A DNA stretch of 64,000 nucleotides from Halapricum desulfuricans (GCF_017094465.1 NZ_CP064791.1:2232001-2296000); one strand, 5' to 3'. Numbered from the stretch's first letter, positions 12,027 to 47,471 are shown. Translations and numbers: made by a program. The notes: a model not told the origin generated them from the letters alone.

Positions 12027-12570
12027 TGGATGAGTATCGCTCCGTCCGGTAAATATATCCACGCCCGCAGTTCTCAGCCGTGATAGTAGCCAGCAGTCTC
12101 GGCTCGTCGTGCTTCGAACCGATGGGCTCGTGAGTCACTGTGCGCACATTCGTTCGCACCTCGCCTGCTCACGGGTCGCTGCCGCTCCCCGTTCGTGCAG
12201 TTCGCGGACTCCCGTCGGTCGTCCGCGCGCCGCTCGCTCATATGGAAACGCTCGCCACTCACGGGTCGCTGCCGCTCCCCGTTCGTGCAGTTCGCGGACT
12301 CCCGTCGGTCGTCCGCGCGCCGCTCGCGGATCCCGGCTCACGGGTCACGTTCGTTCCCCGTTCGCTCACATGGAGACGCTCGTTACACTCGCGGATCCCG
12401 TTCGCGGGTCGTTTCTCCCCGCTCACGTGTTCGAGGCCCTCACACAGTTCAGGCCTCGCCTGCTCACGGGTCACGTCCGTTCCCCGCTCGCACATTTGGA
12501 TCCGCTCGCTGACGCTCGCGGATCCCGTTCGACGGCTTTAAGTTTCGCATCGGCTTCTGATCGTACGAGA
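12027..12570. other. Repeat-rich gene-free spacer
   Basis: About 540 bases between the Tat lipoprotein start and the L1 leader with no credible gene. Short open frames here are Arg/Ser-rich and arise from repeated CTCACGGGTC / TCCCCGTTCGC motifs. These motifs recur about every 60-100 bases and include a near-perfect 70-base duplication. Confidence 0.7.
12168..12327. repeat. 70-bp direct repeat, period 90
   Basis: Bases 12168-12237 and 12258-12327 appear identical over 70 bases, separated by 20 bases. Degenerate relatives of the CACGGGTC...TCCCCGTTCGC core continue to about 12530. A related core occurs in reverse orientation inside the helicase gene (46494-46514), so this is an interspersed repeat family and not a purely local duplication. 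Confidence 0.85.
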
Positions 12571-14674: not shown

Positions 14675-15000
14675 CCGCGATTACCACATCGTTTCTTTCG
14701 AGCGCGATCGGATAGCGGCGCGATTGGCATCACACTCCTCGAATTTCTCCAGCAGTCGCTCGTAGAACCCATCGCCGTCTTCGGCCAGTTTCTCGACGAT
14801 CAACTCCGGTGTCGAACGGGCGAGTTTCCCCGTTCACTGGCGAGCGGTTGACAATCATTTCCCAGTCTCCCAGCCCGATGACCGATTCCTGGCGATAAAT
14901 AACAGTATTTCGTATAACGTTCTGGATTGGCTTAAGATTGCTGTGCGATCACCGCATTTTGGGAAGCGATCGTCCGGTTATATCTACGGACATTCAACCT
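14675..15000. other. Intergenic region with a mutS-like gene fragment
   Basis: A 326-base gene-free stretch after rpl12. It holds a copy of the 3' end of the mutS-like gene (14733-14848, described separately), then AT-richer sequence leading to the dehydrogenase promoter. A TTATATCTA box near 14978-14986 lies about 15-23 bases before ATG 15001. Confidence 0.7.
14733..14848 (-). pseudogene. Copy A: duplicated 3' end of the mutS-like gene
   Basis: Bases 14733-14831 match 16490-16588 exactly (99 bases), then after one extra G at 14832 identity resumes to 14848 / 16604. The fragment corresponds to the last 38 or so codons of the mutS-like gene at 16489-18519. It is non-functional: the extra base shifts the frame, and the stop codon is altered (TGT GAT where the parent has TGA). 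The near-perfect identity implies a recent duplication. Confidence 0.9.
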
Positions 15001-16074
15001 ATGCAGTGCATGGACGCAGCCAGATATTACGGACAGGAAGACATCCGCGTCGAAGACGTCGAACCGGACGCAGTCGGACCAGAGGAAGTTCGGGTCGACG
15101 TCGAGGCCTGCGGGATCTGTGGTTCGGATCTCCACGAGTACACCGCCGGTCCGATCTTCGTCCCCGGGGACGCACCGCACCCCGTCTCGGGCGCACAGGC
15201 ACCGCTCACGATGGGGCACGAGTTCAGTGGCGTCATCTCGGAGGTCGGCTCGGACGTCACCGACCGCTCGGAGGGCGAGGCCGTCGCGGTTAACCCGATC
15301 ATCTACTGTGGGGAGTGCCCCCGCTGTGAGGCTGGAGAGTACCACCGGTGTGAATCGCTCGGGTTCGTCGGCCTGGCGTCGAACGGCGGGTTCGCCGAGA
15401 ACGTCGTTGTCGACGCCGAGCAGGCCGTCCCGCTCGGGGATATGCCAGTCGAACACGGGGCGCTCGTCGAACCGCTGGCGGTCGCGCTGCACGCCGCGCG
15501 TGTCGCCGACGTTTCGCCCGGGGACTCGGTCGCCGTGTTCGGAAGCGGTCCGATCGGCCTCTGTGTGATCCAGGCCTTGCGTGTGGCCGGTGCCGGCCCG
15601 ATCATCGTCTCTGAGCCGCGCGACCAGCGACGCGAGCGTGCCGAAGCGTGCGGTGCGGACGTGCTGATCGACCCGGCCGAGGAGGCTGCACTTGAAGCGA
15701 TTCGCGCAGAGACCGGCGAAGGTGTGGACATCGCGTTTGACGTCGCCGGCGTCGAGGCGACGTACAACCAGGCGATCGACAGCACGCGCCCCGGCGGACG
15801 CGTCGCGGAAGTCAGCATCTTCGAGGAGAGCGTCGAGACCCAGCCGAACGACCTAGTTATTCCGGAGCGCGAACTCGTCGGCTCGATCGCCTATCAGGGC
15901 GGCCCCCGATCGGCCGAGGAGTTCGGAATGGTCATCGATATGCTCGAAGACGGTCGGTTCGACCCCGATCCGCTAATCACCGACCGGATCGAACTCGACG
16001 ATATCTCCGAGAAGGGCTTCGAGCGTCTCATCGATCCCGATAGCGATCAGGTGAAGATTCTCGTAAAGCCCTAG
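15001..16074 (+). CDS. Zinc-dependent alcohol dehydrogenase, 2,3-butanediol dehydrogenase-like
   Basis: 357-residue medium-chain dehydrogenase, NAD(P)-dependent. Catalytic zinc site: CGICGSDLHEY (Cys40) and GHEFSG (His and Glu near 73-74). Structural zinc cluster: Cys at about 103, 106, 109 and 117 (CGECPRCEAGEYHRC). The Rossmann motif GSGPIGL starts at residue 181. The overall pattern resembles (R,R)-butanediol dehydrogenases and related sorbitol dehydrogenases. ATG 15001 is preferred over upstream codons because a TATA-like box sits about 20 bases before it. The gene is bracketed by copies of the mutS-like 3' end (14733-14848 and 16113-16168), so it appears to be an inserted cassette. Confidence 0.9.
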   Translation: MQCMDAARYYGQEDIRVEDVEPDAVGPEEVRVDVEACGICGSDLHEYTAGPIFVPGDAPHPVSGAQAPLTMGHEFSGVISEVGSDVTDRSEGEAVAVNPIIYCGECPRCEAGEYHRCESLGFVGLASNGGFAENVVVDAEQAVPLGDMPVEHGALVEPLAVALHAARVADVSPGDSVAVFGSGPIGLCVIQALRVAGAGPIIVSEPRDQRRERAEACGADVLIDPAEEAALEAIRAETGEGVDIAFDVAGVEATYNQAIDSTRPGGRVAEVSIFEESVETQPNDLVIPERELVGSIAYQGGPRSAEEFGMVIDMLEDGRFDPDPLITDRIELDDISEKGFERLIDPDSDQVKILVKP

Positions 16075-16112
16075 TCGGGTCACCGACCATCGATAATCGA
16101 TTTGACCCGCTG

Positions 16113-16168
16113 TGGCATTCACGGTTCGAACTTCTCCAGCAGTCGCTCGTAGAATCCGTCGCCGTTCG
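16113..16168 (-). pseudogene. Copy B: degenerate third copy of the mutS-like 3' end
   Basis: Bases about 16126-16168 match the end of the mutS-like gene (CTCCAGCAGTCGCTCGTAGA core) with a few mismatches and then diverge. A TGGCATYCAC sequence just before (16113) is shared with copy A (14725) but not with the parent end, so copies A and B share an outer boundary. It is too short and diverged to encode anything. Confidence 0.75.
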
Positions 16169-16186
16169 CGCGGTACTTAATCCCAT

Positions 16187-16223
16187 AATTATATAATCTT
16201 ACAAAATACTGTATATCTACAGT
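16187..16223 (+). promoter_or_regulatory. Promoter and operator-like palindrome of the small membrane gene
   Basis: AT-rich TTATATAATC (about 16188-16198) lies roughly 26-35 bases before ATG 16224 and should be the TATA box of a leaderless transcript. ACTGTA-TATC-TACAGT, a perfect 6-bp inverted repeat (16208-16223), abuts the start codon and so would overlap the initiation site, the arrangement of a repressor operator (inference). Confidence 0.5.
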
Positions 16224-16463
16224 ATGAAAATGAGAGAAGGACTAAAAGACAGGATGCTCAGGACCGATCACCAGGGATGGGACCGCCAGTGGTTGCCATA
16301 TCTTAATGCCGTCACATTTGTTCCGTTGGGTGTGATTCTCGCTTGGTTGTTGGTGCCAGCTGGAATTAGTCCAGTCTGGGAAGGTCTTAGCTATGGTCTC
16401 GGTGCAGGAGTTGGGAGTGTAATCGGAGGGCTGATCCTAGCTTCTATTGACATACATATGTGA
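16224..16463 (+). CDS. Small two-helix membrane protein
   Basis: 79 residues. A basic N-terminus (MKMREGLKDRMLR) is followed by two hydrophobic helices (about 30-47 and 52-73), the second Gly-rich (GLGAGVGSVIGGLILAS). The base composition and codon use are noticeably more AT-rich than in neighbouring genes, and the protein is basic rather than acidic, both signs of recent transfer. It lies between copy B and the true end of the mutS-like gene. Family unknown. Confidence 0.65.
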   Translation: MKMREGLKDRMLRTDHQGWDRQWLPYLNAVTFVPLGVILAWLLVPAGISPVWEGLSYGLGAGVGSVIGGLILASIDIHM

Positions 16464-16488
16464 CTAAGCCGGTCTCTGGCCGACTGTC

Positions 16489-18519
16489 TCACTCCTCGAA
16501 TTTCTCCAGCAGTCGCTCGTAGAACCCATCGCCGTCTTCGGCCAGTTTCTCGACGATCAACTCCGGTGTCGAACGGGCGAGTTTCCCCTTCACTGGCGAG
16601 CGGTCGACGATCAACTCGCCGTCTTCCAGGCCGACGGCCTCGATGCCGTCGACGGCGATCTCGGTTGCGGCGACGTCACGGATCTCGCCCGCCAGGTGGG
16701 AGACGAACACGGCCGTCGCGCCCCGCTGTTCGAGGGCTTCGAGGATGCCGGCCATGATGTTCGCGCTCGCGCCGGGTTCGGTGATGCTCTCCAGTTCGTC
16801 CACGAGAACGAGCGTCTCCCGGTCCGCGGCGACACCGGTGACGAGATCGCCGAACTCCCGAAGCGTCGTCTCGAAGGCCCCGGCATCGAGGGTGCCCTGG
16901 GTCTTGGCGTAGTAGTGGAATTCGTCGATCCGCCCCACTCGGGCGGCGTCGGCGGGCACGGGCAGCCCCATGTGTGCGAGGACGACCACCAGCGCGATGA
17001 GATCGAGCGTCGAGGTCTTCCCGCCGCTGTTGACCCCCGACAGCAACGCGACACCGTCGACGTGGTAGTCAATCGGCTCGACCTCGCCGAAGGGCACGTC
17101 CAACAGCGGCGAGCGCCCGCCCTCGATGGCGACACCTGTTGTCGGTGCGCCCGCGTTTTCGTCCGCCTGCGAACCGTCGGGGGCAGCGACATCTCCGATC
17201 GCAGGTAGCGTGCAGTCGAAATCCGCGGCGAAGCGGGCGACCGCAAGTTCCATGTCCAGTTCCAGCGCCGCGTCCACGAGCGCCTCGGCGTCCGCCCGGA
17301 GGTCAGCGAGATTGCCGGCCAGTTCTCGCTTCAGGCGGGCCGCACGCCGGTCGCGAGCCGTCGTCAGTTCCTCCCGCAGGCGAGCGACGACGTCCTCGAT
17401 GTGCTCGACCGGGTAGGTCGGCTCGTCGGGAAACGCACGGCGGGCGATGGCTTCGGTGTCCTGCAGTTGTAGGGTGTCGATCAGATGCTCACGGGCAGCC
17501 GCGATAGCGGCGTCGTACTCGTCGGCGAGCTCGCGAGAGAGCAGCGAATCGACGCCCGCGCCGCGCTCGACCAACGAGAGCAGATCTGTGCCCTCGATAG
17601 TGACATCGCGCTCTTCAATGGCCTCCCGGAGATGGTCGTTAGCGACCGACTCAGCGGTCGAGACGGCGGCATCCAGATCGTCGACGGCCGTCGCAAGCCG
17701 ATTTAGTTCGTCGTCACCGCGGGGCCGGCCGTCCTCGTCCAGCGTCTCCAAGGCCGACTCGAGCGTGTCCAGACCACAGGGGGGATCGAGGTCGGCCGCG
17801 CGGTGGACCGCGACGGCCGCCCGTAGCGGCTCGCGGTTGGCAGCGAAGAAGGCGAGCGGGCGCTCGGGGACGACTTCCTCGGGCCGCTCCAGGGCGTCAG
17901 GTTCGACTCGCACGTCGCCCTCGATGTCGACGCCCGCGAACTGTTCGTCCAGCACGACGACAGTCGCGTAGCTGCGGGCGAGTTCGGCGACCTGTCGGGT
18001 GTCCTCGACGACCTCGACGCTGACCTCCGGGATGGCCTCCTTGGCCTCGGCGTAGCGCTCGGCGTCGCTCGTGGCGAGACAGCGATCCCGGACCCGCACG
18101 TCACCGGGGACAGAGAGCGGCTCGACTCCGGCGAGTGCCTCCAGTATCGCAGGGTCGGGATCGCGCTCGATCGCCGCGCCGGTGAACGACCGCACTTCCC
18201 GGATCCGGCTCTCGGTGGCGCTGGGATAGAGCGTCTCCAGGCGGGCGGCCGCGTCGTCGGTGACGGTCCGCGCTTTGAGTAGCGCGATCGCGTCCCGGTA
18301 GATCTCACGGGCACGGTCGGTCGCCAGAAAGTCGCCGTGGTCGCCGTGGCGCCGTCGGATCGCACCCCGGGCGATGCGAGCGGCCCGACCCTCGCTGATC
18401 CCCGGGGCGCGAGCGAGCGCGGCGACGTCACCTGTTTCGAGTGCGCGCTCGGGATCGTCGAGCTGCGAGAGCGCCTCGGCCGTCTTGGCTCCGACGCCAG
18501 GCACCGACTCCAGGTCCAT
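16489..18519 (-). CDS. MutS-like ATPase with N-terminal helix-hairpin-helix
   Basis: 676-residue MutS-family protein of the archaeal MutS5-like group, not classical mismatch-repair MutS. Residues 5-60 hold helix-hairpin-helix motifs (VPGVGAKTAEAL and PGISEGRAARI); residues about 100-430 are the helical lever/clamp region; the ATPase domain has Walker A GVNSGGKTS near residue 495 and Walker B LVLVDELES near 570. No mismatch-recognition domain and no Smr nuclease domain are visible. A role in recombination or branched-DNA processing is inferred. The last 38 codons have been duplicated downstream twice. ATG 18519 is preferred over the 18552 extension. Confidence 0.88.
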   Translation of the reverse strand: MDLESVPGVGAKTAEALSQLDDPERALETGDVAALARAPGISEGRAARIARGAIRRRHGDHGDFLATDRAREIYRDAIALLKARTVTDDAAARLETLYPSATESRIREVRSFTGAAIERDPDPAILEALAGVEPLSVPGDVRVRDRCLATSDAERYAEAKEAIPEVSVEVVEDTRQVAELARSYATVVVLDEQFAGVDIEGDVRVEPDALERPEEVVPERPLAFFAANREPLRAAVAVHRAADLDPPCGLDTLESALETLDEDGRPRGDDELNRLATAVDDLDAAVSTAESVANDHLREAIEERDVTIEGTDLLSLVERGAGVDSLLSRELADEYDAAIAAAREHLIDTLQLQDTEAIARRAFPDEPTYPVEHIEDVVARLREELTTARDRRAARLKRELAGNLADLRADAEALVDAALELDMELAVARFAADFDCTLPAIGDVAAPDGSQADENAGAPTTGVAIEGGRSPLLDVPFGEVEPIDYHVDGVALLSGVNSGGKTSTLDLIALVVVLAHMGLPVPADAARVGRIDEFHYYAKTQGTLDAGAFETTLREFGDLVTGVAADRETLVLVDELESITEPGASANIMAGILEALEQRGATAVFVSHLAGEIRDVAATEIAVDGIEAVGLEDGELIVDRSPVKGKLARSTPELIVEKLAEDGDGFYERLLEKFEE

Positions 18520-18575
18520 TATCGACCCTGTATGTAGCCACCCCCAATACACTTTTTCAGTGCACGCGCTCGGGG

Positions 18576-39959: not shown

Positions 39960-42900
39960 ATGGCCACCGCGGACAACACGGAACTCATCGATCGTTTCGA
40001 GGAGTTCTACCGGGACTACTATCGCAACGAGATCGGCGAACTCGCACAGAAGTACCCCTCCGAACAGAAGTCGCTATTCGTCGACTGGCAGGACCTCTAC
40101 CGGTTCGACCCGGATCTGGCAGAGGACGTCCGCAACCAGCCCGAGCAGCTGCAGGAATACGCCGAGGAGGCGCTGCGACTCTACGACCTCCCCGTCGACG
40201 TGAAACTCGGGCAGGCCCACGTCCGCATCGAGAACCTCCCGGAGACGACAGGCATCCGGGACATCCGCGCGGACCACCGCGGCCAGCTCATCAGCGTCCA
40301 GGGGATCGTCCGCAAGGCCACGGAGGTCCGCCCGAAGGTGACGACCGCGGCCTTCGAGTGCCAGCGCTGTGGCACGCTGACCCGTATCCCCCAGACGACG
40401 GGCGATTTCCAGGAACCCCACGAGTGTCAGGGTTGTGAGCGTCAGGGCCCCTTCCGGATCAACTTCGACCAGTCGGAGTTCATCGACGCCCAGAAGATCC
40501 GCGTCCAGGAGTCCCCCGAAGGGCTGCGCGGCGGCGAGACCCCCCAGTCGATCGACGTCAACATCGAAGACGACATCACCGGCAACGTCACCGCGGGCGA
40601 TCACGTCCGCGTGAGCGGCATCCTCAAACTCGACCAGCGGGAGAGCGGCAACGAGAAGACCCCCATGTTCGACACGTACATGGACGGGATGACCGTCGAG
40701 ATCGAGGACGAGCAGTTCGAGGAGATGGACATCACCGACGAGGACAAAAAGGAAATCGTCGAGCTCTCAAACGAACCCGACATCTACGAGCAGATGGTCG
40801 GCGCGATCGCCCCCTCGATCTACGGCTACGAGCAGGAGAAGCTCTCGATGATCCTCCAGCTGTTCTCGGGCGTCTCGAAGGACCTCCCCGACGGCTCTCG
40901 GATCCGTGGGGACCTGCATATGCTCTTGATCGGTGACCCTGGTACAGGAAAGTGCCTCGCAGGCGACACGAGCGTGACACTCGGAGACGGCACGACACGT
41001 CCGATTCGAGAACTCGTCGAGTCAAATCTTGACGATCGCAAGCCGGTCGATGATGGGGTGTGGGACACAGCTGAGTTCAGTGTTCCCTCACTGCAAGCCG
41101 ATGGACAGATTGAACAGCGACAGGTGACCAAGGTCTGGAAGCGAGAAGCGCCGGAGAAGCTGTACCAGATCCGAACGTCAACAGGGCGTGAAGTCGAAGT
41201 AACGCCGTCACATCCCCTGTTCGTCCGGACGAACAGGGGATTTCAGGCAGTTCGGGCAGACAACCTCAAAGACGGGCAGCGGGTTGCCGTCGAGCCAGCC
41301 GCTACGGACACCGCCAGTGAGGTCGCTGACGCGATAGCGGACGGTGGGGCCGCTCTTGCAGGAACGGATGTCATCGATCGCATCGAGCGCCTCGAACCCG
41401 ACGACGACTGGGTATACGATCTCGAAGTCGAGGGAACGCACAACTACATTTCGAACGGGATCGTCTCTCACAACTCTCAGATGCTATCATATATCCAAAA
41501 TATCGCCCCGAGATCCGTCTATACGTCGGGGAAAGGATCCTCGGCGGCTGGGCTCACCGCTGCGGCTGTTAGAGACGACTTCGGAGACGGCCAGCAGTGG
41601 ACGTTAGAGGCTGGAGCGCTCGTTCTCGCCGATCAAGGGATCGCGGCAGTCGACGAACTCGACAAGATGGCCGCGGACGATCGATCGGCAATGCACGAAG
41701 CACTCGAACAACAATCCTACCACCCGAATTCGGAGATACTGCTCGCTGACGGTCGACGGGTCGAGATCGGGCAGTTCGTCGACGAGCGGATGGACGACAA
41801 CCCCGGAGACGTCGTCGACGGCGTCGACTGCGAGATTCTCCCGATCGACGACGCCGGCGTTCATACGGTCGATCTAGAAGACAACGACGTACAGAAGACG
41901 TCGATCGACCGGATGAGCCGCCACGAGGCACCCGAAGAGTTCGTTCGGGTCACGTTCTCGAACGGCCGCGACGTCATCGTGACGCCCGAACACCCGATGT
42001 TCGCCGACGTCGACGGCGAGATTCGGACGGTTGCCGCCGAGAACATCGAGGAGGGAACGTACGTCCCCGCACCGCGGAAGCTCCCCAACAGCAGCGCGGC
42101 AGTCGAACTCGACGACGAAGCACGCATCGGCAAAGAGAAAGACGTCTCGCTGCCCGAGGAGTTGTCGCCCGATCTGGGTGAGATCCTTGGCTTGCTGACA
42201 GCCGAGGGCCACAGCTACGCCGGCTCGGCACACGAGATCGGCTTCTCGAACCAGGACGAGCGCCTCCTCGGCCGGATGGACAGACTCATGGACGACGTGT
42301 TCGGGATGGAGAGCACCGACACGACGAACGAGGCGGGAACCGTAACCAAACGGTGGGTCTCGACGAAGCTCTACCGCTGGTTCGAACGCAACTTCCCCGA
42401 GATGATGCACACTGCACGCGACAAGCGGATCCCGTCTGTCGTCCTCGGAGCGTCGGAAGAAACGATCCGCCGGTTCCTCGTCGGTGCGTTCGCCGGGGAC
42501 GGCGGAGTCGAGAGCGAGGCGATGTCGTTCTCGACTGCATCGGACGGACTCGCCGAAGACTACGCCGACGCCCTTTCGAAGATCGGCGTCGGATCTCGCA
42601 TCCATCACGATAGCGCAGAGGACGCCTGGAAGGTCTACGTGATGGGTGACTCAACCGGGGAGTTCGTCGAACGCGTCGTCGAACCAGCGGACGACCGCTA
42701 CGAGGAGGCCGTCGCGTTCGCCGAGCGAAGCGACGAGACGGTACGCCACCACGACGTGTTGCCGCCGGGTGCGGCCGAGGAGTTGCGAACACTGCGAACG
42801 CTACTGGGGCTGGCCCTGACCGGTCGGTATCGACCAAATCTGGACGAATCATACGGCGTCCAGATCGAGACAGTCAAGGACGAACTCGCGACGTTGCGCG

Positions 42901-44147
42901 AACGGATTGCCACCGTGCGCGAGGGGGCTGAACGAGCCGACACGCTTGGAGAACTCAGGACAGCAATCGGCTGGTCCGGTCGACAGCTAGCCGACCGTCT
43001 GGACGGCGAGACGGCCAGCGCGGTCCACTACGCAGAGGACGGAGGCTACGACCAACAGCGTCGTGACGAGCTCGCGACCGTTGCGGAGGGAGCGATCGAG
43101 GACGCACTCCAGGAAGCCCAGCGTCGGATCAACGCCCTCGAAGAGAAGTGTGACCTCCGATACTACGAAGTCACGGATATCGAGACGGTTTCCAACGAAG
43201 ACGAGTACGCGACCGAGTGGGTCTACGACGTGACCGTCGAGCCGACCAACACGTTCGTCAGCCAGGGCGTCGTCCTGCACAACTCGATCAGCGTCTCCAA
43301 GGCCGGAATTAACGCGACACTGAAAAGTCGCTGTTCGTTGCTCGGCGCGGCAAACCCCAAGTACGGCCGGTTCGACCAGTACGAACCGATCGGCGAGCAG
43401 ATCGATCTGGAGCCCGCCCTCATTTCTCGGTTCGATCTGATCTTCACGGTCACGGACAAGCCCGACGAGGAGAAGGATCGAAAGCTGGCCCAGCACATCC
43501 TGACGACCAACTACGCGGGCGAGTTGCACACCCACCGTCAGGAGAACGCGACGCCGGACTTCTCGGCGGAGGAAGTCGAGACTGTCACCGAGGAGGTCGA
43601 TCCGACGATCGAGCCCGAACTCCTGCGCAAATACATCGCTTACGCCAAGCGCAACTGCTTCCCGACGATGACCGAGGAGGCCAAAGACGAGATCGAGTCG
43701 TTCTACGTCGACCTGCGCTCGAAAGGCCAGGACGAGGACGCCGCAGTCCCCGTCACCGCCCGGAAGATCGAGGCGCTCATCCGGCTGGCGGAATCCTCTG
43801 CCCGAGTTCGTCTTTCGGACACTGTCGAGCAACGCGACGCCGAGCGAGTGATCGAGATCGTCCGCTCGTCGCTGCAGGACATCGGCGTCGACCCCGAGAC
43901 CGGCGAACTCGACGCCGACGTCATCGAGACCGGAACCTCGAAAAGTCAGCGCGATCGCATCCAGAACCTCAAGGGAATCATCGCCGACATCCAGGACGAG
44001 TACGACGACGGCGCGCCGGTCGAGGTCGTGATCGAGCGTGCCGAGGAGGTCGGCATCGACGAATCGAAGGCCGAACACGAGATCGAGAAGCTCAAACAGC
44101 AGGGCGAGATCTACGAGCCGACCAACGGGAACCTGCGGACGACGTGA
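39960..44147 (+). CDS. mcm: Replicative helicase MCM with two inteins
   Basis: The precursor is 1395 residues; removing both inteins leaves 698, the normal archaeal MCM length. N-terminal domain with a zinc finger (CQRCG...CQGC, near 140-165), AAA+ core: Walker A IGDPGTGK immediately before intein 1, Walker B AAVDELDKM, sensor 1 AANP, arginine finger SRFDLIF, and a C-terminal winged helix. Homohexameric 3'-5' helicase for chromosome replication. ATG 39960 (MATADNTEL) is preferred; the frame extends into the repeat leader. Codon use around the first intein and in the 80-residue extein between the inteins (41475-41714) looks less GC-rich than elsewhere. Confidence 0.97.
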   Translation: MATADNTELIDRFEEFYRDYYRNEIGELAQKYPSEQKSLFVDWQDLYRFDPDLAEDVRNQPEQLQEYAEEALRLYDLPVDVKLGQAHVRIENLPETTGIRDIRADHRGQLISVQGIVRKATEVRPKVTTAAFECQRCGTLTRIPQTTGDFQEPHECQGCERQGPFRINFDQSEFIDAQKIRVQESPEGLRGGETPQSIDVNIEDDITGNVTAGDHVRVSGILKLDQRESGNEKTPMFDTYMDGMTVEIEDEQFEEMDITDEDKKEIVELSNEPDIYEQMVGAIAPSIYGYEQEKLSMILQLFSGVSKDLPDGSRIRGDLHMLLIGDPGTGKCLAGDTSVTLGDGTTRPIRELVESNLDDRKPVDDGVWDTAEFSVPSLQADGQIEQRQVTKVWKREAPEKLYQIRTSTGREVEVTPSHPLFVRTNRGFQAVRADNLKDGQRVAVEPAATDTASEVADAIADGGAALAGTDVIDRIERLEPDDDWVYDLEVEGTHNYISNGIVSHNSQMLSYIQNIAPRSVYTSGKGSSAAGLTAAAVRDDFGDGQQWTLEAGALVLADQGIAAVDELDKMAADDRSAMHEALEQQSYHPNSEILLADGRRVEIGQFVDERMDDNPGDVVDGVDCEILPIDDAGVHTVDLEDNDVQKTSIDRMSRHEAPEEFVRVTFSNGRDVIVTPEHPMFADVDGEIRTVAAENIEEGTYVPAPRKLPNSSAAVELDDEARIGKEKDVSLPEELSPDLGEILGLLTAEGHSYAGSAHEIGFSNQDERLLGRMDRLMDDVFGMESTDTTNEAGTVTKRWVSTKLYRWFERNFPEMMHTARDKRIPSVVLGASEETIRRFLVGAFAGDGGVESEAMSFSTASDGLAEDYADALSKIGVGSRIHHDSAEDAWKVYVMGDSTGEFVERVVEPADDRYEEAVAFAERSDETVRHHDVLPPGAAEELRTLRTLLGLALTGRYRPNLDESYGVQIETVKDELATLRERIATVREGAERADTLGELRTAIGWSGRQLADRLDGETASAVHYAEDGGYDQQRRDELATVAEGAIEDALQEAQRRINALEEKCDLRYYEVTDIETVSNEDEYATEWVYDVTVEPTNTFVSQGVVLHNSISVSKAGINATLKSRCSLLGAANPKYGRFDQYEPIGEQIDLEPALISRFDLIFTVTDKPDEEKDRKLAQHILTTNYAGELHTHRQENATPDFSAEEVETVTEEVDPTIEPELLRKYIAYAKRNCFPTMTEEAKDEIESFYVDLRSKGQDEDAAVPVTARKIEALIRLAESSARVRLSDTVEQRDAERVIEIVRSSLQDIGVDPETGELDADVIETGTSKSQRDRIQNLKGIIADIQDEYDDGAPVEVVIERAEEVGIDESKAEHEIEKLKQQGEIYEPTNGNLRTT
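40953..41474 (+). other. Intein 1 in MCM (mini-intein, Walker A site)
   Basis: 174 residues (332-505 of the precursor). Begins with Cys1 (CLAGDTSVTLGDG), has a block B TPSHPLF, block F WVYDLEVEGTHNYISNG, and ends VSHN with Ser+1. No LAGLIDADG motif, so it splices but cannot home by itself. Inserted directly after the Walker A lysine, a well-used intein site in archaeal MCM. Splicing restores GKSQMLSYI. Confidence 0.95.
41715..43283 (+). other. Intein 2 in MCM (with LAGLIDADG homing endonuclease)
   Basis: 523 residues (586-1108 of the precursor). It starts with Ser1 (SYHPNSEILLADG), block B TPEHPMF, two LAGLIDADG-type helices (LGEILGLLTAEGH and FLVGAFAGDGG), block F EWVYDVTVEPTNTFVSQG, and ends VLHN before Ser+1. 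It is inserted in HEALEQQ/SISVSKAGI downstream of Walker B. The acidic residues of both endonuclease motifs (Glu and Asp) are retained, so it may still be an active homing element (inference). Confidence 0.95.
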
Positions 44148-45089: not shown

Positions 45090-45185
45090 GTCTGCTCGAT
45101 AGGTGAAAGGCGAGGACAATCAAACTACCCGACCACTTGCTCCGGTGGGCGAACGTTTTTGCCCGCGAGCGGTCAATCTACGGGC

Positions 45186-47471
45186 GTGGCAACAGAGCCG
45201 TCGTACCTCCGGTTTTTCCCCTACGACCAGCCCTACGACCACCAGCGAGATGCGATGGGGCGGATCCACGACGCGCTCGGGGACGGCCGAGACGTGCTCT
45301 TCGAGGGGGCCTGCGGGACGGGCAAGACGCTGGCGTCGCTGACGCCGGCCCTTGAGTACGCCCGCGAGACCGACAAGACCGTCGTCATCACGACGAACGT
45401 CCACCAGCAGACGCGGCAGTTCATCGAGGAAGCCAGTGCCATCGCACAGACGGAGGACCTCCGGGCGCTCGTCTTCCGCGGAAAGGCCTCGATGTGTCAC
45501 ATCGACGTGGGCTACGAGGAGTGTCAGGCGCTGCGAGACACCACGCGCGAGCAGGTCGAACTCGAACGTGACCGAGCCGAACTCGAGCGTCGCCAGCGGG
45601 AACTGCTCGAGGCCAGCCAGGCCGGCGAGGGCGAGGCCGCCGAGGCCCGGTCGGCCGTGATGGACGACCTGGAAGCGATCGAAGACGACCTCTCGGAATT
45701 CGAGGACCGTGCGACCTGCGAACACTACTACCGGAATCTGACCGTGGATACGGAGGAGTTCTACGCGTGGCTGTACGACGACGTCCGCACGCCCGAAGAC
45801 ATCTACGAGTACGCCGACCGAGAGGGGCTGTGTGGGTACGAACTCCTCAAGGAGGGAATGGACGGGGTCGATCTGGTGATCGCGAACTACCATCACCTGC
45901 TGGATCCGATGATCCGCGAGCAGTTCTTCCGGTGGCTGGGTCGGGACCCCGAAGACGTGATCGCGGTCTTCGACGAGGCACACAACGTCGAGGACGCCGC
46001 CCGCGAGCACGCCCGCCGGACGCTCACCGAGAACACACTCGGGCAAGCGCTAGACGAACTCGCTGACACTGACGACCCGCGCGTCGAGGCTGCCGAAAAC
46101 GTCATCGAGACCTACCGGGACGCGCTCGAAGCGACCTACCGGGAGACGATGGGAGCCGACACGGTCCGGGAAGCGGAGGTAGACGATCAGTGGACGGATC
46201 TGCCGATCGACAGCCCCGACCGGAAGGACGATCTGACGCTGTCGTTCCTGCGGTCCTACACCGGTCCTGGCTACCGAGAAGAGCTAGAGCGAGCGCTCGA
46301 ACTCGGCCGTGAACTCGACCAGCAGTACGAACAGGCCTACAAGGACGGTGAGACCACCGTCCGGAAGGAGTGTCAGACGCTGCAAGCGGCGACGTTTCTG
46401 GACGCGTGGTTCGACGAGGGCGACAGCCAGGGGATGTATCCCGTCATAAGCGTTCGGCGTGATGGCGAACGAAGTGAGCCATCAACGGGAGCAAGCGGGG
46501 AGGAACGACCCGCGAGCCGCGCGGACGACCGTGAGGGATTCACAGGCAGACAGGACGGCCTCGGAGACGGTGGGGCCGGAGAAATCTACGGGCGTGCCGA
46601 GTTGTACACCTGTATCCCCGAGCGCGTGACCCGCTCGCTGTTCGATGATCTGCACGCAGCGGTGCTGATGAGCGCGACGCTGCGACCGTTCGAGGTGACC
46701 GAGGACGTACTCGGACTTGAGGACCCGGAGACGATGGCCTACGGCGCGCAGTTCCCCGAGGAGCGACGCCGGACCTACGCCGTCGAGGCGCCTGCGCTGT
46801 TTGCCAGCGAGCGCGACGATCCGTCCACGCAGGACACGATCACGGGCGTCTTGGAGGACGCCATCAAATTCACGCCGGGAAACACGCTCGCCTTCTTTCC
46901 GAGTTACGCCGAGGCCGAGCGGTACTACCACCGCGTCGAGACCGACGGGAAACGGTATCTCGACGAGCCAGGGGTATCCGCACAGGAGTTGCGCGAGGAG
47001 TTCACCGACGGTGACGACGGCGTCCTCTTTTCGTCGCTGTGGGGAACGCTCACCGAAGGCGTCAGCTACGACGGCGACGACGCCCGGACGGCCGTGGTCG
47101 TGGGCGTCCCCTATCCGCATTTAGACGAACGAATGGACGCCGTCCAGGACGCCTACGGAGCGGCCTTCGGCGGTAGTGACGCCGAGGACGCCGGCTGGCG
47201 CTACGCTGTCGAGATCCCGACGGTCCGGAAGACCCGACAGGCGCTGGGACGAGTCGTGCGCTCGCCGGCCGACTTCGGGGCGCGGGTGCTCGTGGACAAA
47301 CGCTACACCCGCAGCGGCGAAGTAGAGATGCAGGGGTACGCCGTCCGCAAGACCTTCCCGGCCGAAGAGCGTGCCGAGATGATCGACGTCGGGCCGGAGA
47401 AGCTACAGTTCGGACTCCTGAACTTCTACAACGACCTGGACGCCTACGACGGCAAGCCGCCACAACCCTGA
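45186..47471 (+). CDS. XPD/Rad3-like superfamily 2 DNA helicase
   Basis: 761 residues. Motif I EGACGTGKTLASL, DEAH box VFDEAHNVED, motif VI QALGRVVRSPADFG. Four cysteines in the region between motifs Ia and II (SMCHIDVGYEECQ, ATCEHYY and GLCGYEL) match an XPD-type 4Fe-4S cluster domain, though spacing differs; a charged arch-like helical insertion lies at about 120-190. Acts in repair or R-loop/damage sensing. GTG 45186 (VATEPSYLRFFPYD) fits the family start. Residues about 424-462 form a basic, Ser/Gly/Arg-rich insertion derived from an interspersed repeat (46461-46580), still in frame. Confidence 0.9.
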   Translation: MATEPSYLRFFPYDQPYDHQRDAMGRIHDALGDGRDVLFEGACGTGKTLASLTPALEYARETDKTVVITTNVHQQTRQFIEEASAIAQTEDLRALVFRGKASMCHIDVGYEECQALRDTTREQVELERDRAELERRQRELLEASQAGEGEAAEARSAVMDDLEAIEDDLSEFEDRATCEHYYRNLTVDTEEFYAWLYDDVRTPEDIYEYADREGLCGYELLKEGMDGVDLVIANYHHLLDPMIREQFFRWLGRDPEDVIAVFDEAHNVEDAAREHARRTLTENTLGQALDELADTDDPRVEAAENVIETYRDALEATYRETMGADTVREAEVDDQWTDLPIDSPDRKDDLTLSFLRSYTGPGYREELERALELGRELDQQYEQAYKDGETTVRKECQTLQAATFLDAWFDEGDSQGMYPVISVRRDGERSEPSTGASGEERPASRADDREGFTGRQDGLGDGGAGEIYGRAELYTCIPERVTRSLFDDLHAAVLMSATLRPFEVTEDVLGLEDPETMAYGAQFPEERRRTYAVEAPALFASERDDPSTQDTITGVLEDAIKFTPGNTLAFFPSYAEAERYYHRVETDGKRYLDEPGVSAQELREEFTDGDDGVLFSSLWGTLTEGVSYDGDDARTAVVVGVPYPHLDERMDAVQDAYGAAFGGSDAEDAGWRYAVEIPTVRKTRQALGRVVRSPADFGARVLVDKRYTRSGEVEMQGYAVRKTFPAEERAEMIDVGPEKLQFGLLNFYNDLDAYDGKPPQP
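46461..46580 (-). repeat. Interspersed repeat copy inside the XPD-like helicase gene
   Basis: A roughly 120-base in-frame insertion. It starts with an inverted repeat GATGGC-n11-GCCATC (46461-46483), and 46494-46514 is the reverse complement, with one mismatch, of 12403-12423 in the repeat-rich spacer upstream of rpl1. The encoded residues (RRDGERSEPSTGASGEERPA...) are unlike the acidic surroundings. The end at 46580 is approximate. Confidence 0.65.

What the first reader, a model, noticed from the sequence alone, without database searches (positions are those of the whole stretch)
14725..16604. The 3' end of a mutS-like gene has been copied twice, bracketing inserted genes
Copy A (14733-14848) matches the true gene end (16490-16604) exactly for 99 bases and continues after one inserted base. 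Copy B (16113-16168) is an older, shorter version. Copies A and B share an extra outer TGGCATYCAC that the parent lacks. A dehydrogenase gene lies between A and B, and an AT-rich small membrane gene between B and the real end. This looks like repeated cassette insertion at one gene terminus, each event regenerating or duplicating the tail, as integrases do at att sites, yet no integrase is present.
Basis: partly seen in the sequence, partly recalled or inferred. Interest (0 to 1): 0.72.

Follow-up and report, generated by a model that had tools for sequence, protein, structure and literature searches.

The report
Old gene ends stranded by insertions
Next to a DNA-repair-like gene of a salt-loving archaeon lie two leftover copies of that gene's own last stretch, stranded when other genes were spliced in at its end; the same scar surrounds many toxin-antitoxin gene pairs in related archaea, pointing to a way of adding genes that does not rely on the usual integrase enzymes.

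Summary
Tail A (14733-14848) and tail B (16113-16168) are extra copies of the 3' end of the mutS-like gene (16489-18522, minus strand). They occur only here in this genome and in none of 391 other Halobacteriales genomes scanned. Congeners supply the expected comparison: one uninterrupted tail, with the dehydrogenase (DH) directly beside it in three and no DH in two. Tail B plus its GGCATTCAC flank is the ancestral mutS end, still attached to DH; the 79-aa gene was inserted behind it. Tail A sits at a chromosomal rearrangement junction (rpl12 against DH). Its inner part is decayed and its outer 99-116 bp match the live gene, most simply by later gene conversion. No integrase was found. The pattern recurs: in MAG contig L038 a MNT-HEPN toxin-antitoxin pair sits at the end of the same gene behind a 95-bp tail copy, and relative L042 is the empty site. 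Of 30 related HEPN loci, 12 carry flanking direct repeats against 5 of 1500 control stretches; six distinct insertions (L038 included) duplicate the 3' ends of different genes. Best reading: insertion with long target duplication, probably homology-anchored import with one illegitimate end; not att-site integration.

The parts
16489..18522 (-). Live mutS-like gene (677 aa: helix-hairpin-helix + MutS domain V ATPase); its 3' end is the source of the tails
   Evidence: Pfam MutS_V 6e-10, HHH_5 1e-7; found at full length in congeners
14725..14883 (-). Tail A: outer flank TGGCATCAC + about 150 bp of mutS 3' end, the outermost 99-116 bp identical to the live gene, the inner 35 bp decayed
   Evidence: at the rpl12|DH rearrangement junction
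14884..15000 (+). DH upstream region, joined directly to tail A; homologous to DH-upstream DNA in congeners
15001..16074 (+). Zinc-dependent alcohol/polyol dehydrogenase (DH), 357 aa; adjacent to mutS in G001, G002, G005; absent at this place in G003, G004
16113..16168 (-). Tail B: ancestral flank TGGCATTCAC + 42-47 bp of mutS 3' end with intact stop; 4 of its 5 changed codons are synonymous
16169..16488 (.). Inserted 320-bp AT-rich segment between tail B and the live gene end, absent from all congeners
16224..16463 (+). 79-aa predicted membrane protein of unknown family inside the inserted segment
14336..14724 (+). rpl12 and its conserved 3' flank, to which tail A is joined; in congeners a TctA-like gene follows

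Best explanation
The locus records gene gains at the 3' end of mutS, each of which left the resident gene end behind as a displaced direct repeat. Proposed mechanism: incoming DNA from a relative carries the gene's 3' part plus a new downstream neighbour. It pairs with and replaces the resident gene end by homologous recombination; its other, non-homologous end is joined by illegitimate repair inside the resident tail. The gene stays intact, the new neighbour is added, and the old tail with its old downstream flank is stranded beyond it. This is insertion with long target duplication by homology-facilitated illegitimate recombination. Shown: the anatomy, uniqueness, single-tail congeners, tail B as the ancestral DH-linked end, an independent empty-site case, and recurrence around MNT-HEPN pairs. 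Inferred: the recombination steps, later gene conversion of tail A, and the order of events at tail A.
For: Congeners have one tail: helicase-DH-mutS in G001, G002, G005; helicase-mutS in G003, G004. Tail B with its GGCATTCAC flank matches the G002 DH-mutS junction. In tail B, 4 of 5 changed codons are synonymous and the stop is intact, as in a displaced functional allele. L038 against L042: MNT-HEPN pair inserted at the mutS end with a 95-bp tail duplication, the outer copy matching the empty-site sequence. HEPN loci: 12 of 30 with flanking direct repeats against 5 of 1500 controls; 11 of 29 after merging L151 and L152, Fisher p about 6e-17. Repeats are 3' ends of unrelated genes: HerA-like, amidohydrolase, ABM-domain, and two unassigned. 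Second empty site: G041 for L152, the flanks meeting with a 70-bp overlap equal to the repeat. G000 mutS is unusually far from its sister clade (dS 0.76-0.86 against 0.50 for the helicase), compatible with an imported allele.
Against: The imported-mutS idea is only suggestive: the AU test does not reject the species-tree topology (p = 0.17). Tail A could instead come from a local tandem duplication followed by the rearrangement. DH looks vertically inherited in the clade, so A need not mark a DH gain. No donor of the 79-aa gene was found. Homology-anchored import explains spread to a gene already carrying the cassette in a donor, but not the first arrival at each new gene. 18 of 30 HEPN loci show no repeat and about half of the 12 repeats are not clean gene tails.
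Confidence: 0.52

Rival explanations
1. Dedicated mobility with long target duplication: small cassettes insert de novo next to gene ends by an unknown, possibly trans-acting machinery that duplicates 40-150 bp of target, as proposed for restriction-modification genes.
For: MNT-HEPN cassettes at six or more unrelated genes; near-identical copies in L038 (one difference in 95 bp); about 100-bp target duplications reported for R-M systems (PMC3874152).
Against: No shared cassette ends; no recombinase among window proteins; diverged but in-frame displaced tails (L152, L177, window B) fit import of another allele better than a fresh self-duplication.
Confidence: 0.22
2. Tandem duplication plus rearrangement: a DH+mutS-tail segment was duplicated in tandem and a chromosomal rearrangement removed the first DH, leaving tail A; tail B is a separate event.
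For: Tail A lies exactly at the rpl12|DH junction of a 3-break rearrangement; the tail A|DH junction is what a tandem duplication would leave; both tails carry the same outer flank.
Against: Needs an extra loss of DH; does not explain tail B or the 79-aa gene; does not explain the recurrence around MNT-HEPN pairs.
Confidence: 0.14
3. Integrase-mediated insertion at an att site in the mutS 3' end, with the integrase lost or acting in trans.
For: Gene function preserved, direct repeats of the gene end, outer copy carrying the native flank; two lineages hit at the same gene.
Against: No integrase in the window proteins scanned; tail copies found in only 1 of 392 genomes; same cargo family at unrelated genes, different cargo at mutS; repeat lengths of 36-150 bp.
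Confidence: 0.08
4. Assembly or chance artefact.
For: L038 is a metagenome-assembled contig.
Against: The window lies in a 2.7-Mb contig of a near-complete genome; similar anatomy in near-closed genomes (G006, G055: one contig each); 0 chance matches expected.
Confidence: 0.02

Closest known systems
Insertion with long target duplication of restriction-modification genes (Nobusato 2000; Furuta 2010; as cited in PMC3031569 and PMC3874152)
   Same: Addiction-type gene cassettes without a linked mobile element, flanked by direct repeats in the order of 100 bp of target, found by comparing related genomes; often linked to rearrangements
   Different: Archaeal hosts; cargo is MNT-HEPN pairs, a dehydrogenase or a tiny membrane gene; in the clean cases the duplicated target is the gene's 3' end including the stop
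Homology-facilitated illegitimate recombination with sequential displacement (Kirchberger 2017, PMC5361080; HFIR in E. coli conjugation, PMC3240628)
   Same: One homologous end anchors incoming DNA, the other joins illegitimately; older 3' parts are displaced downstream
   Different: There the displaced parts are immunity genes and effector ends in T6SS clusters; here they are short tails of housekeeping-type genes
Integrase att-site insertion in gene 3' ends (general knowledge)
   Same: Gene end restored, original end displaced as a direct repeat
   Different: No integrase, no constant core, no constant target
MNT-HEPN (MntA-HepT) toxin-antitoxin modules (Makarova 2009, PMC2701414; PMC7641770)
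   Same: L038 and L150-type loci carry this pair; recent insertions reported in Deinococcus and Thermus
   Different: A search of that paper found no mention of direct repeats; the window itself has no such pair

Membership tests
Insertion with long target duplication (ILTD) | Inserted gene(s) flanked by direct repeats of target sequence, tens of bp to over 100 bp | tested here: met
   Tails A and B, L038, L151/L152, L162, L166, L176, L177
Insertion with long target duplication (ILTD) | Relative with an empty site carrying a single copy | tested here: met
   Congeners for the window; L042 for L038; G041 for L152
Insertion with long target duplication (ILTD) | No linked classical mobile element | tested here: met
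   No integrase or transposase among the window proteins scanned against Pfam
Insertion with long target duplication (ILTD) | Cargo is a restriction-modification system (the published cases) | tested here: not met
   Cargo is DH, a 79-aa ORF, or MNT-HEPN
Homology-facilitated illegitimate recombination | Gene-attached tail from a donor allele, displaced tail native | tested here: inconclusive
   Outer copy carries the native flank in B, L038, L151/152; in B 4 of 5 changed codons synonymous; mutS tree discordant at 88/84 but AU p = 0.17
Homology-facilitated illegitimate recombination | Direct demonstration of one homologous and one illegitimate junction after DNA uptake | not testable with these tools
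   Needs an experiment
Integrase att-site element | Integrase gene in or near the element | tested here: not met
Integrase att-site element | Constant target/core sequence for the element family | tested here: not met
   Related cassettes at mutS, HerA-like, amidohydrolase, ABM-domain and other genes

The most novel reading that the evidence does not exclude
Haloarchaea have an undescribed route of gene gain in which small cassettes, above all MNT-HEPN toxin-antitoxin pairs, insert directly behind host genes by swapping in a new gene end and stranding the old one. Stranded tails would then be a readable record of successive insertions across genomes.
Probability: 0.3. Interest if true: 0.8.

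Novelty: new variant of a known kind. Interest (0 to 1): 0.57.

Why it matters
Toxin-antitoxin modules are known to move between genomes, but how single modules without a transposon get in is unclear. Stranded gene tails give a sequence signature that marks the insertion point, the old allele and the relative age of each event, so the mode of entry can be counted and tested genome-wide. If it is homology-anchored import, any gene, not only addiction modules, can enter behind a conserved gene without damaging it.

Tried and rejected
Site-specific integration: no integrase, no constant target. Tail as a general insertion hotspot: only this genome among 392 shows it. Recent gain of DH from a G002-like donor: dS of DH (0.42-0.61) is like that of the helicase (0.50), so DH is probably ancestral in the clade. 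Mobile origin of the 79-aa gene: no relative in plasmids, phages or viral contigs, only weak hits in five haloarchaea. Conserved cassette ends as transposon termini: none seen. Furuta 2010 not held in the library.

Full report
OBSERVATION. The live gene, 16489-18522 on the minus strand, is a 677-aa helix-hairpin-helix plus MutS domain V protein. Tail A matches its end exactly over 99 bases (14733-14831 against 16490-16588). One extra G follows, then 16 identical bases, and homology continues at about 79% to about 14883. Tail B has 42-47 bp of homology at about 86% and an intact stop. The shared 21-mer occurs three times against 0.00 expected. A genome search finds the tail at these three places only, apart from short weak matches.

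CONGENERS. The genome is a close relative of Halapricum. In G001, G002 and G005 the order is helicase, dehydrogenase (DH), then convergent mutS and kaiC, with 40-50 bp between DH and mutS and one tail. In G003 and G004 there is no DH and the helicase faces mutS.

TAIL B. The sequence after DH in the window, GGCATTCAC followed by the tail, matches the DH-mutS junction of G002 (GGCATTCACTGCTCGAACTTC). Tail B is therefore the ancestral gene end, still attached to DH. The 320-bp AT-rich segment with the 79-aa ORF lies between it and the present gene end and is absent from all congeners. Four of five changed codons between B and the live gene are synonymous and the stop is kept, which fits a displaced functional allele rather than a decayed duplicate; the sample is small. 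The live mutS is unusually far from its sister clade (dS 0.76-0.86 against 0.50 for the helicase), and its tree groups it with G003 at 88/84, but the species-tree topology is not rejected (AU p = 0.17). Import of a mutS allele together with the small gene is suggested, not shown.

TAIL A. It lies between the conserved rpl12 3' flank and DNA homologous to the region upstream of DH. In congeners rpl12 is followed by a TctA-like gene and DH is preceded by the helicase. In this genome the TctA-like gene is 48 kb to the left and the helicase is at window 45105-47468; three ancestral adjacencies are broken. The inner 35 bp of tail A differ from the live gene mostly by amino-acid-changing substitutions, while the outer 116 bp are identical apart from the one inserted base. 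The simplest reading is an old tail, partly overwritten by gene conversion, a process documented in polyploid haloarchaea (PMC8223754, PMC11276520; abstracts only). Whether A arose by an insertion of the same kind as B or by tandem duplication before the rearrangement cannot be decided here. DH itself looks vertically inherited.

INDEPENDENT CASE. Scanning 39 relatives' mutS loci for a second tail gave one strong hit: L038, a metagenome-assembled haloarchaeal contig. A nucleotidyltransferase gene and a HepT-like gene, a MNT-HEPN toxin-antitoxin pair, follow the mutS stop, and a 95-bp copy of the mutS tail follows them. L042, 97.7% identical, lacks the insert, and its flank continues directly from its single tail. 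The outer copy in L038 matches L042 exactly across the repeat; the gene-attached copy differs at one base.

RECURRENCE. I took the 30 best HepT relatives from 392 Halobacteriales genomes. Twelve have direct repeats on both sides of the HepT gene at E <= 1e-6, against 5 of 1500 random stretches of the same length (11 of 29 after merging one shared insertion, Fisher p about 6e-17). In L151/L152, L162, L166, L176 and L177, and in L038, the repeat is the 3' end of a different host gene: ABM-domain protein, unassigned, HerA-like, amidohydrolase, unassigned and mutS. The other repeats are of other kinds or unclear. For L152 a second empty site exists: in G041 the two flanks meet with a 70-bp overlap equal to the repeat, and the displaced copy carries the native downstream flank. 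The inserted segments share no terminal sequence. Limits: controls were not matched for cargo; loci were chosen by similarity to L038; L038 is metagenomic.

MECHANISM. The common anatomy is: gene body, gene-attached tail, new gene(s), displaced tail, native flank. An integrase is unlikely because the targets are unrelated and none was found among the window proteins scanned against Pfam. Two known concepts fit. One is insertion with long target duplication, described for restriction-modification genes with target repeats in the order of 100 bp (PMC3874152; PMC3031569). The other is homology-facilitated illegitimate recombination, invoked for sequential displacement in Vibrio T6SS clusters (PMC5361080). 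I favour the second as the molecular route for tail B because the displaced tail differs in the manner of another functional allele and keeps the native flank. First arrival at each new gene remains unexplained by it.

VERDICT. The locus is a new variant of a known kind. Its wider interest is the recurrent tail duplication around MNT-HEPN pairs in haloarchaea; four library searches turned up no description of it, though that library is partial.

Noticed in passing
   Followed up: partly
L154, L159, L163, L171, L173, L178: Direct repeats flanking HepT loci that are not clean gene 3' ends; in L178 the repeat looks like the start of a nucleotidyltransferase gene.
   Followed up: no
window 39960-44144: MCM helicase ORF of 1395 aa with intein splicing and LAGLIDADG domains.
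   Followed up: no
window 12168-12237 and 12258-12327: Exact 70-bp direct repeat in GC-rich DNA upstream of rpl1.
   Followed up: no
window 14724/14725, 47471/47507; G000:C1 2196220/2196234: Three-breakpoint rearrangement relative to congeners, with tail A at one of the junctions.
   Followed up: partly
L078 1213-3224: In G004 the mutS-like gene is split by a frameshift (two tblastn pieces in different frames).
   Followed up: no
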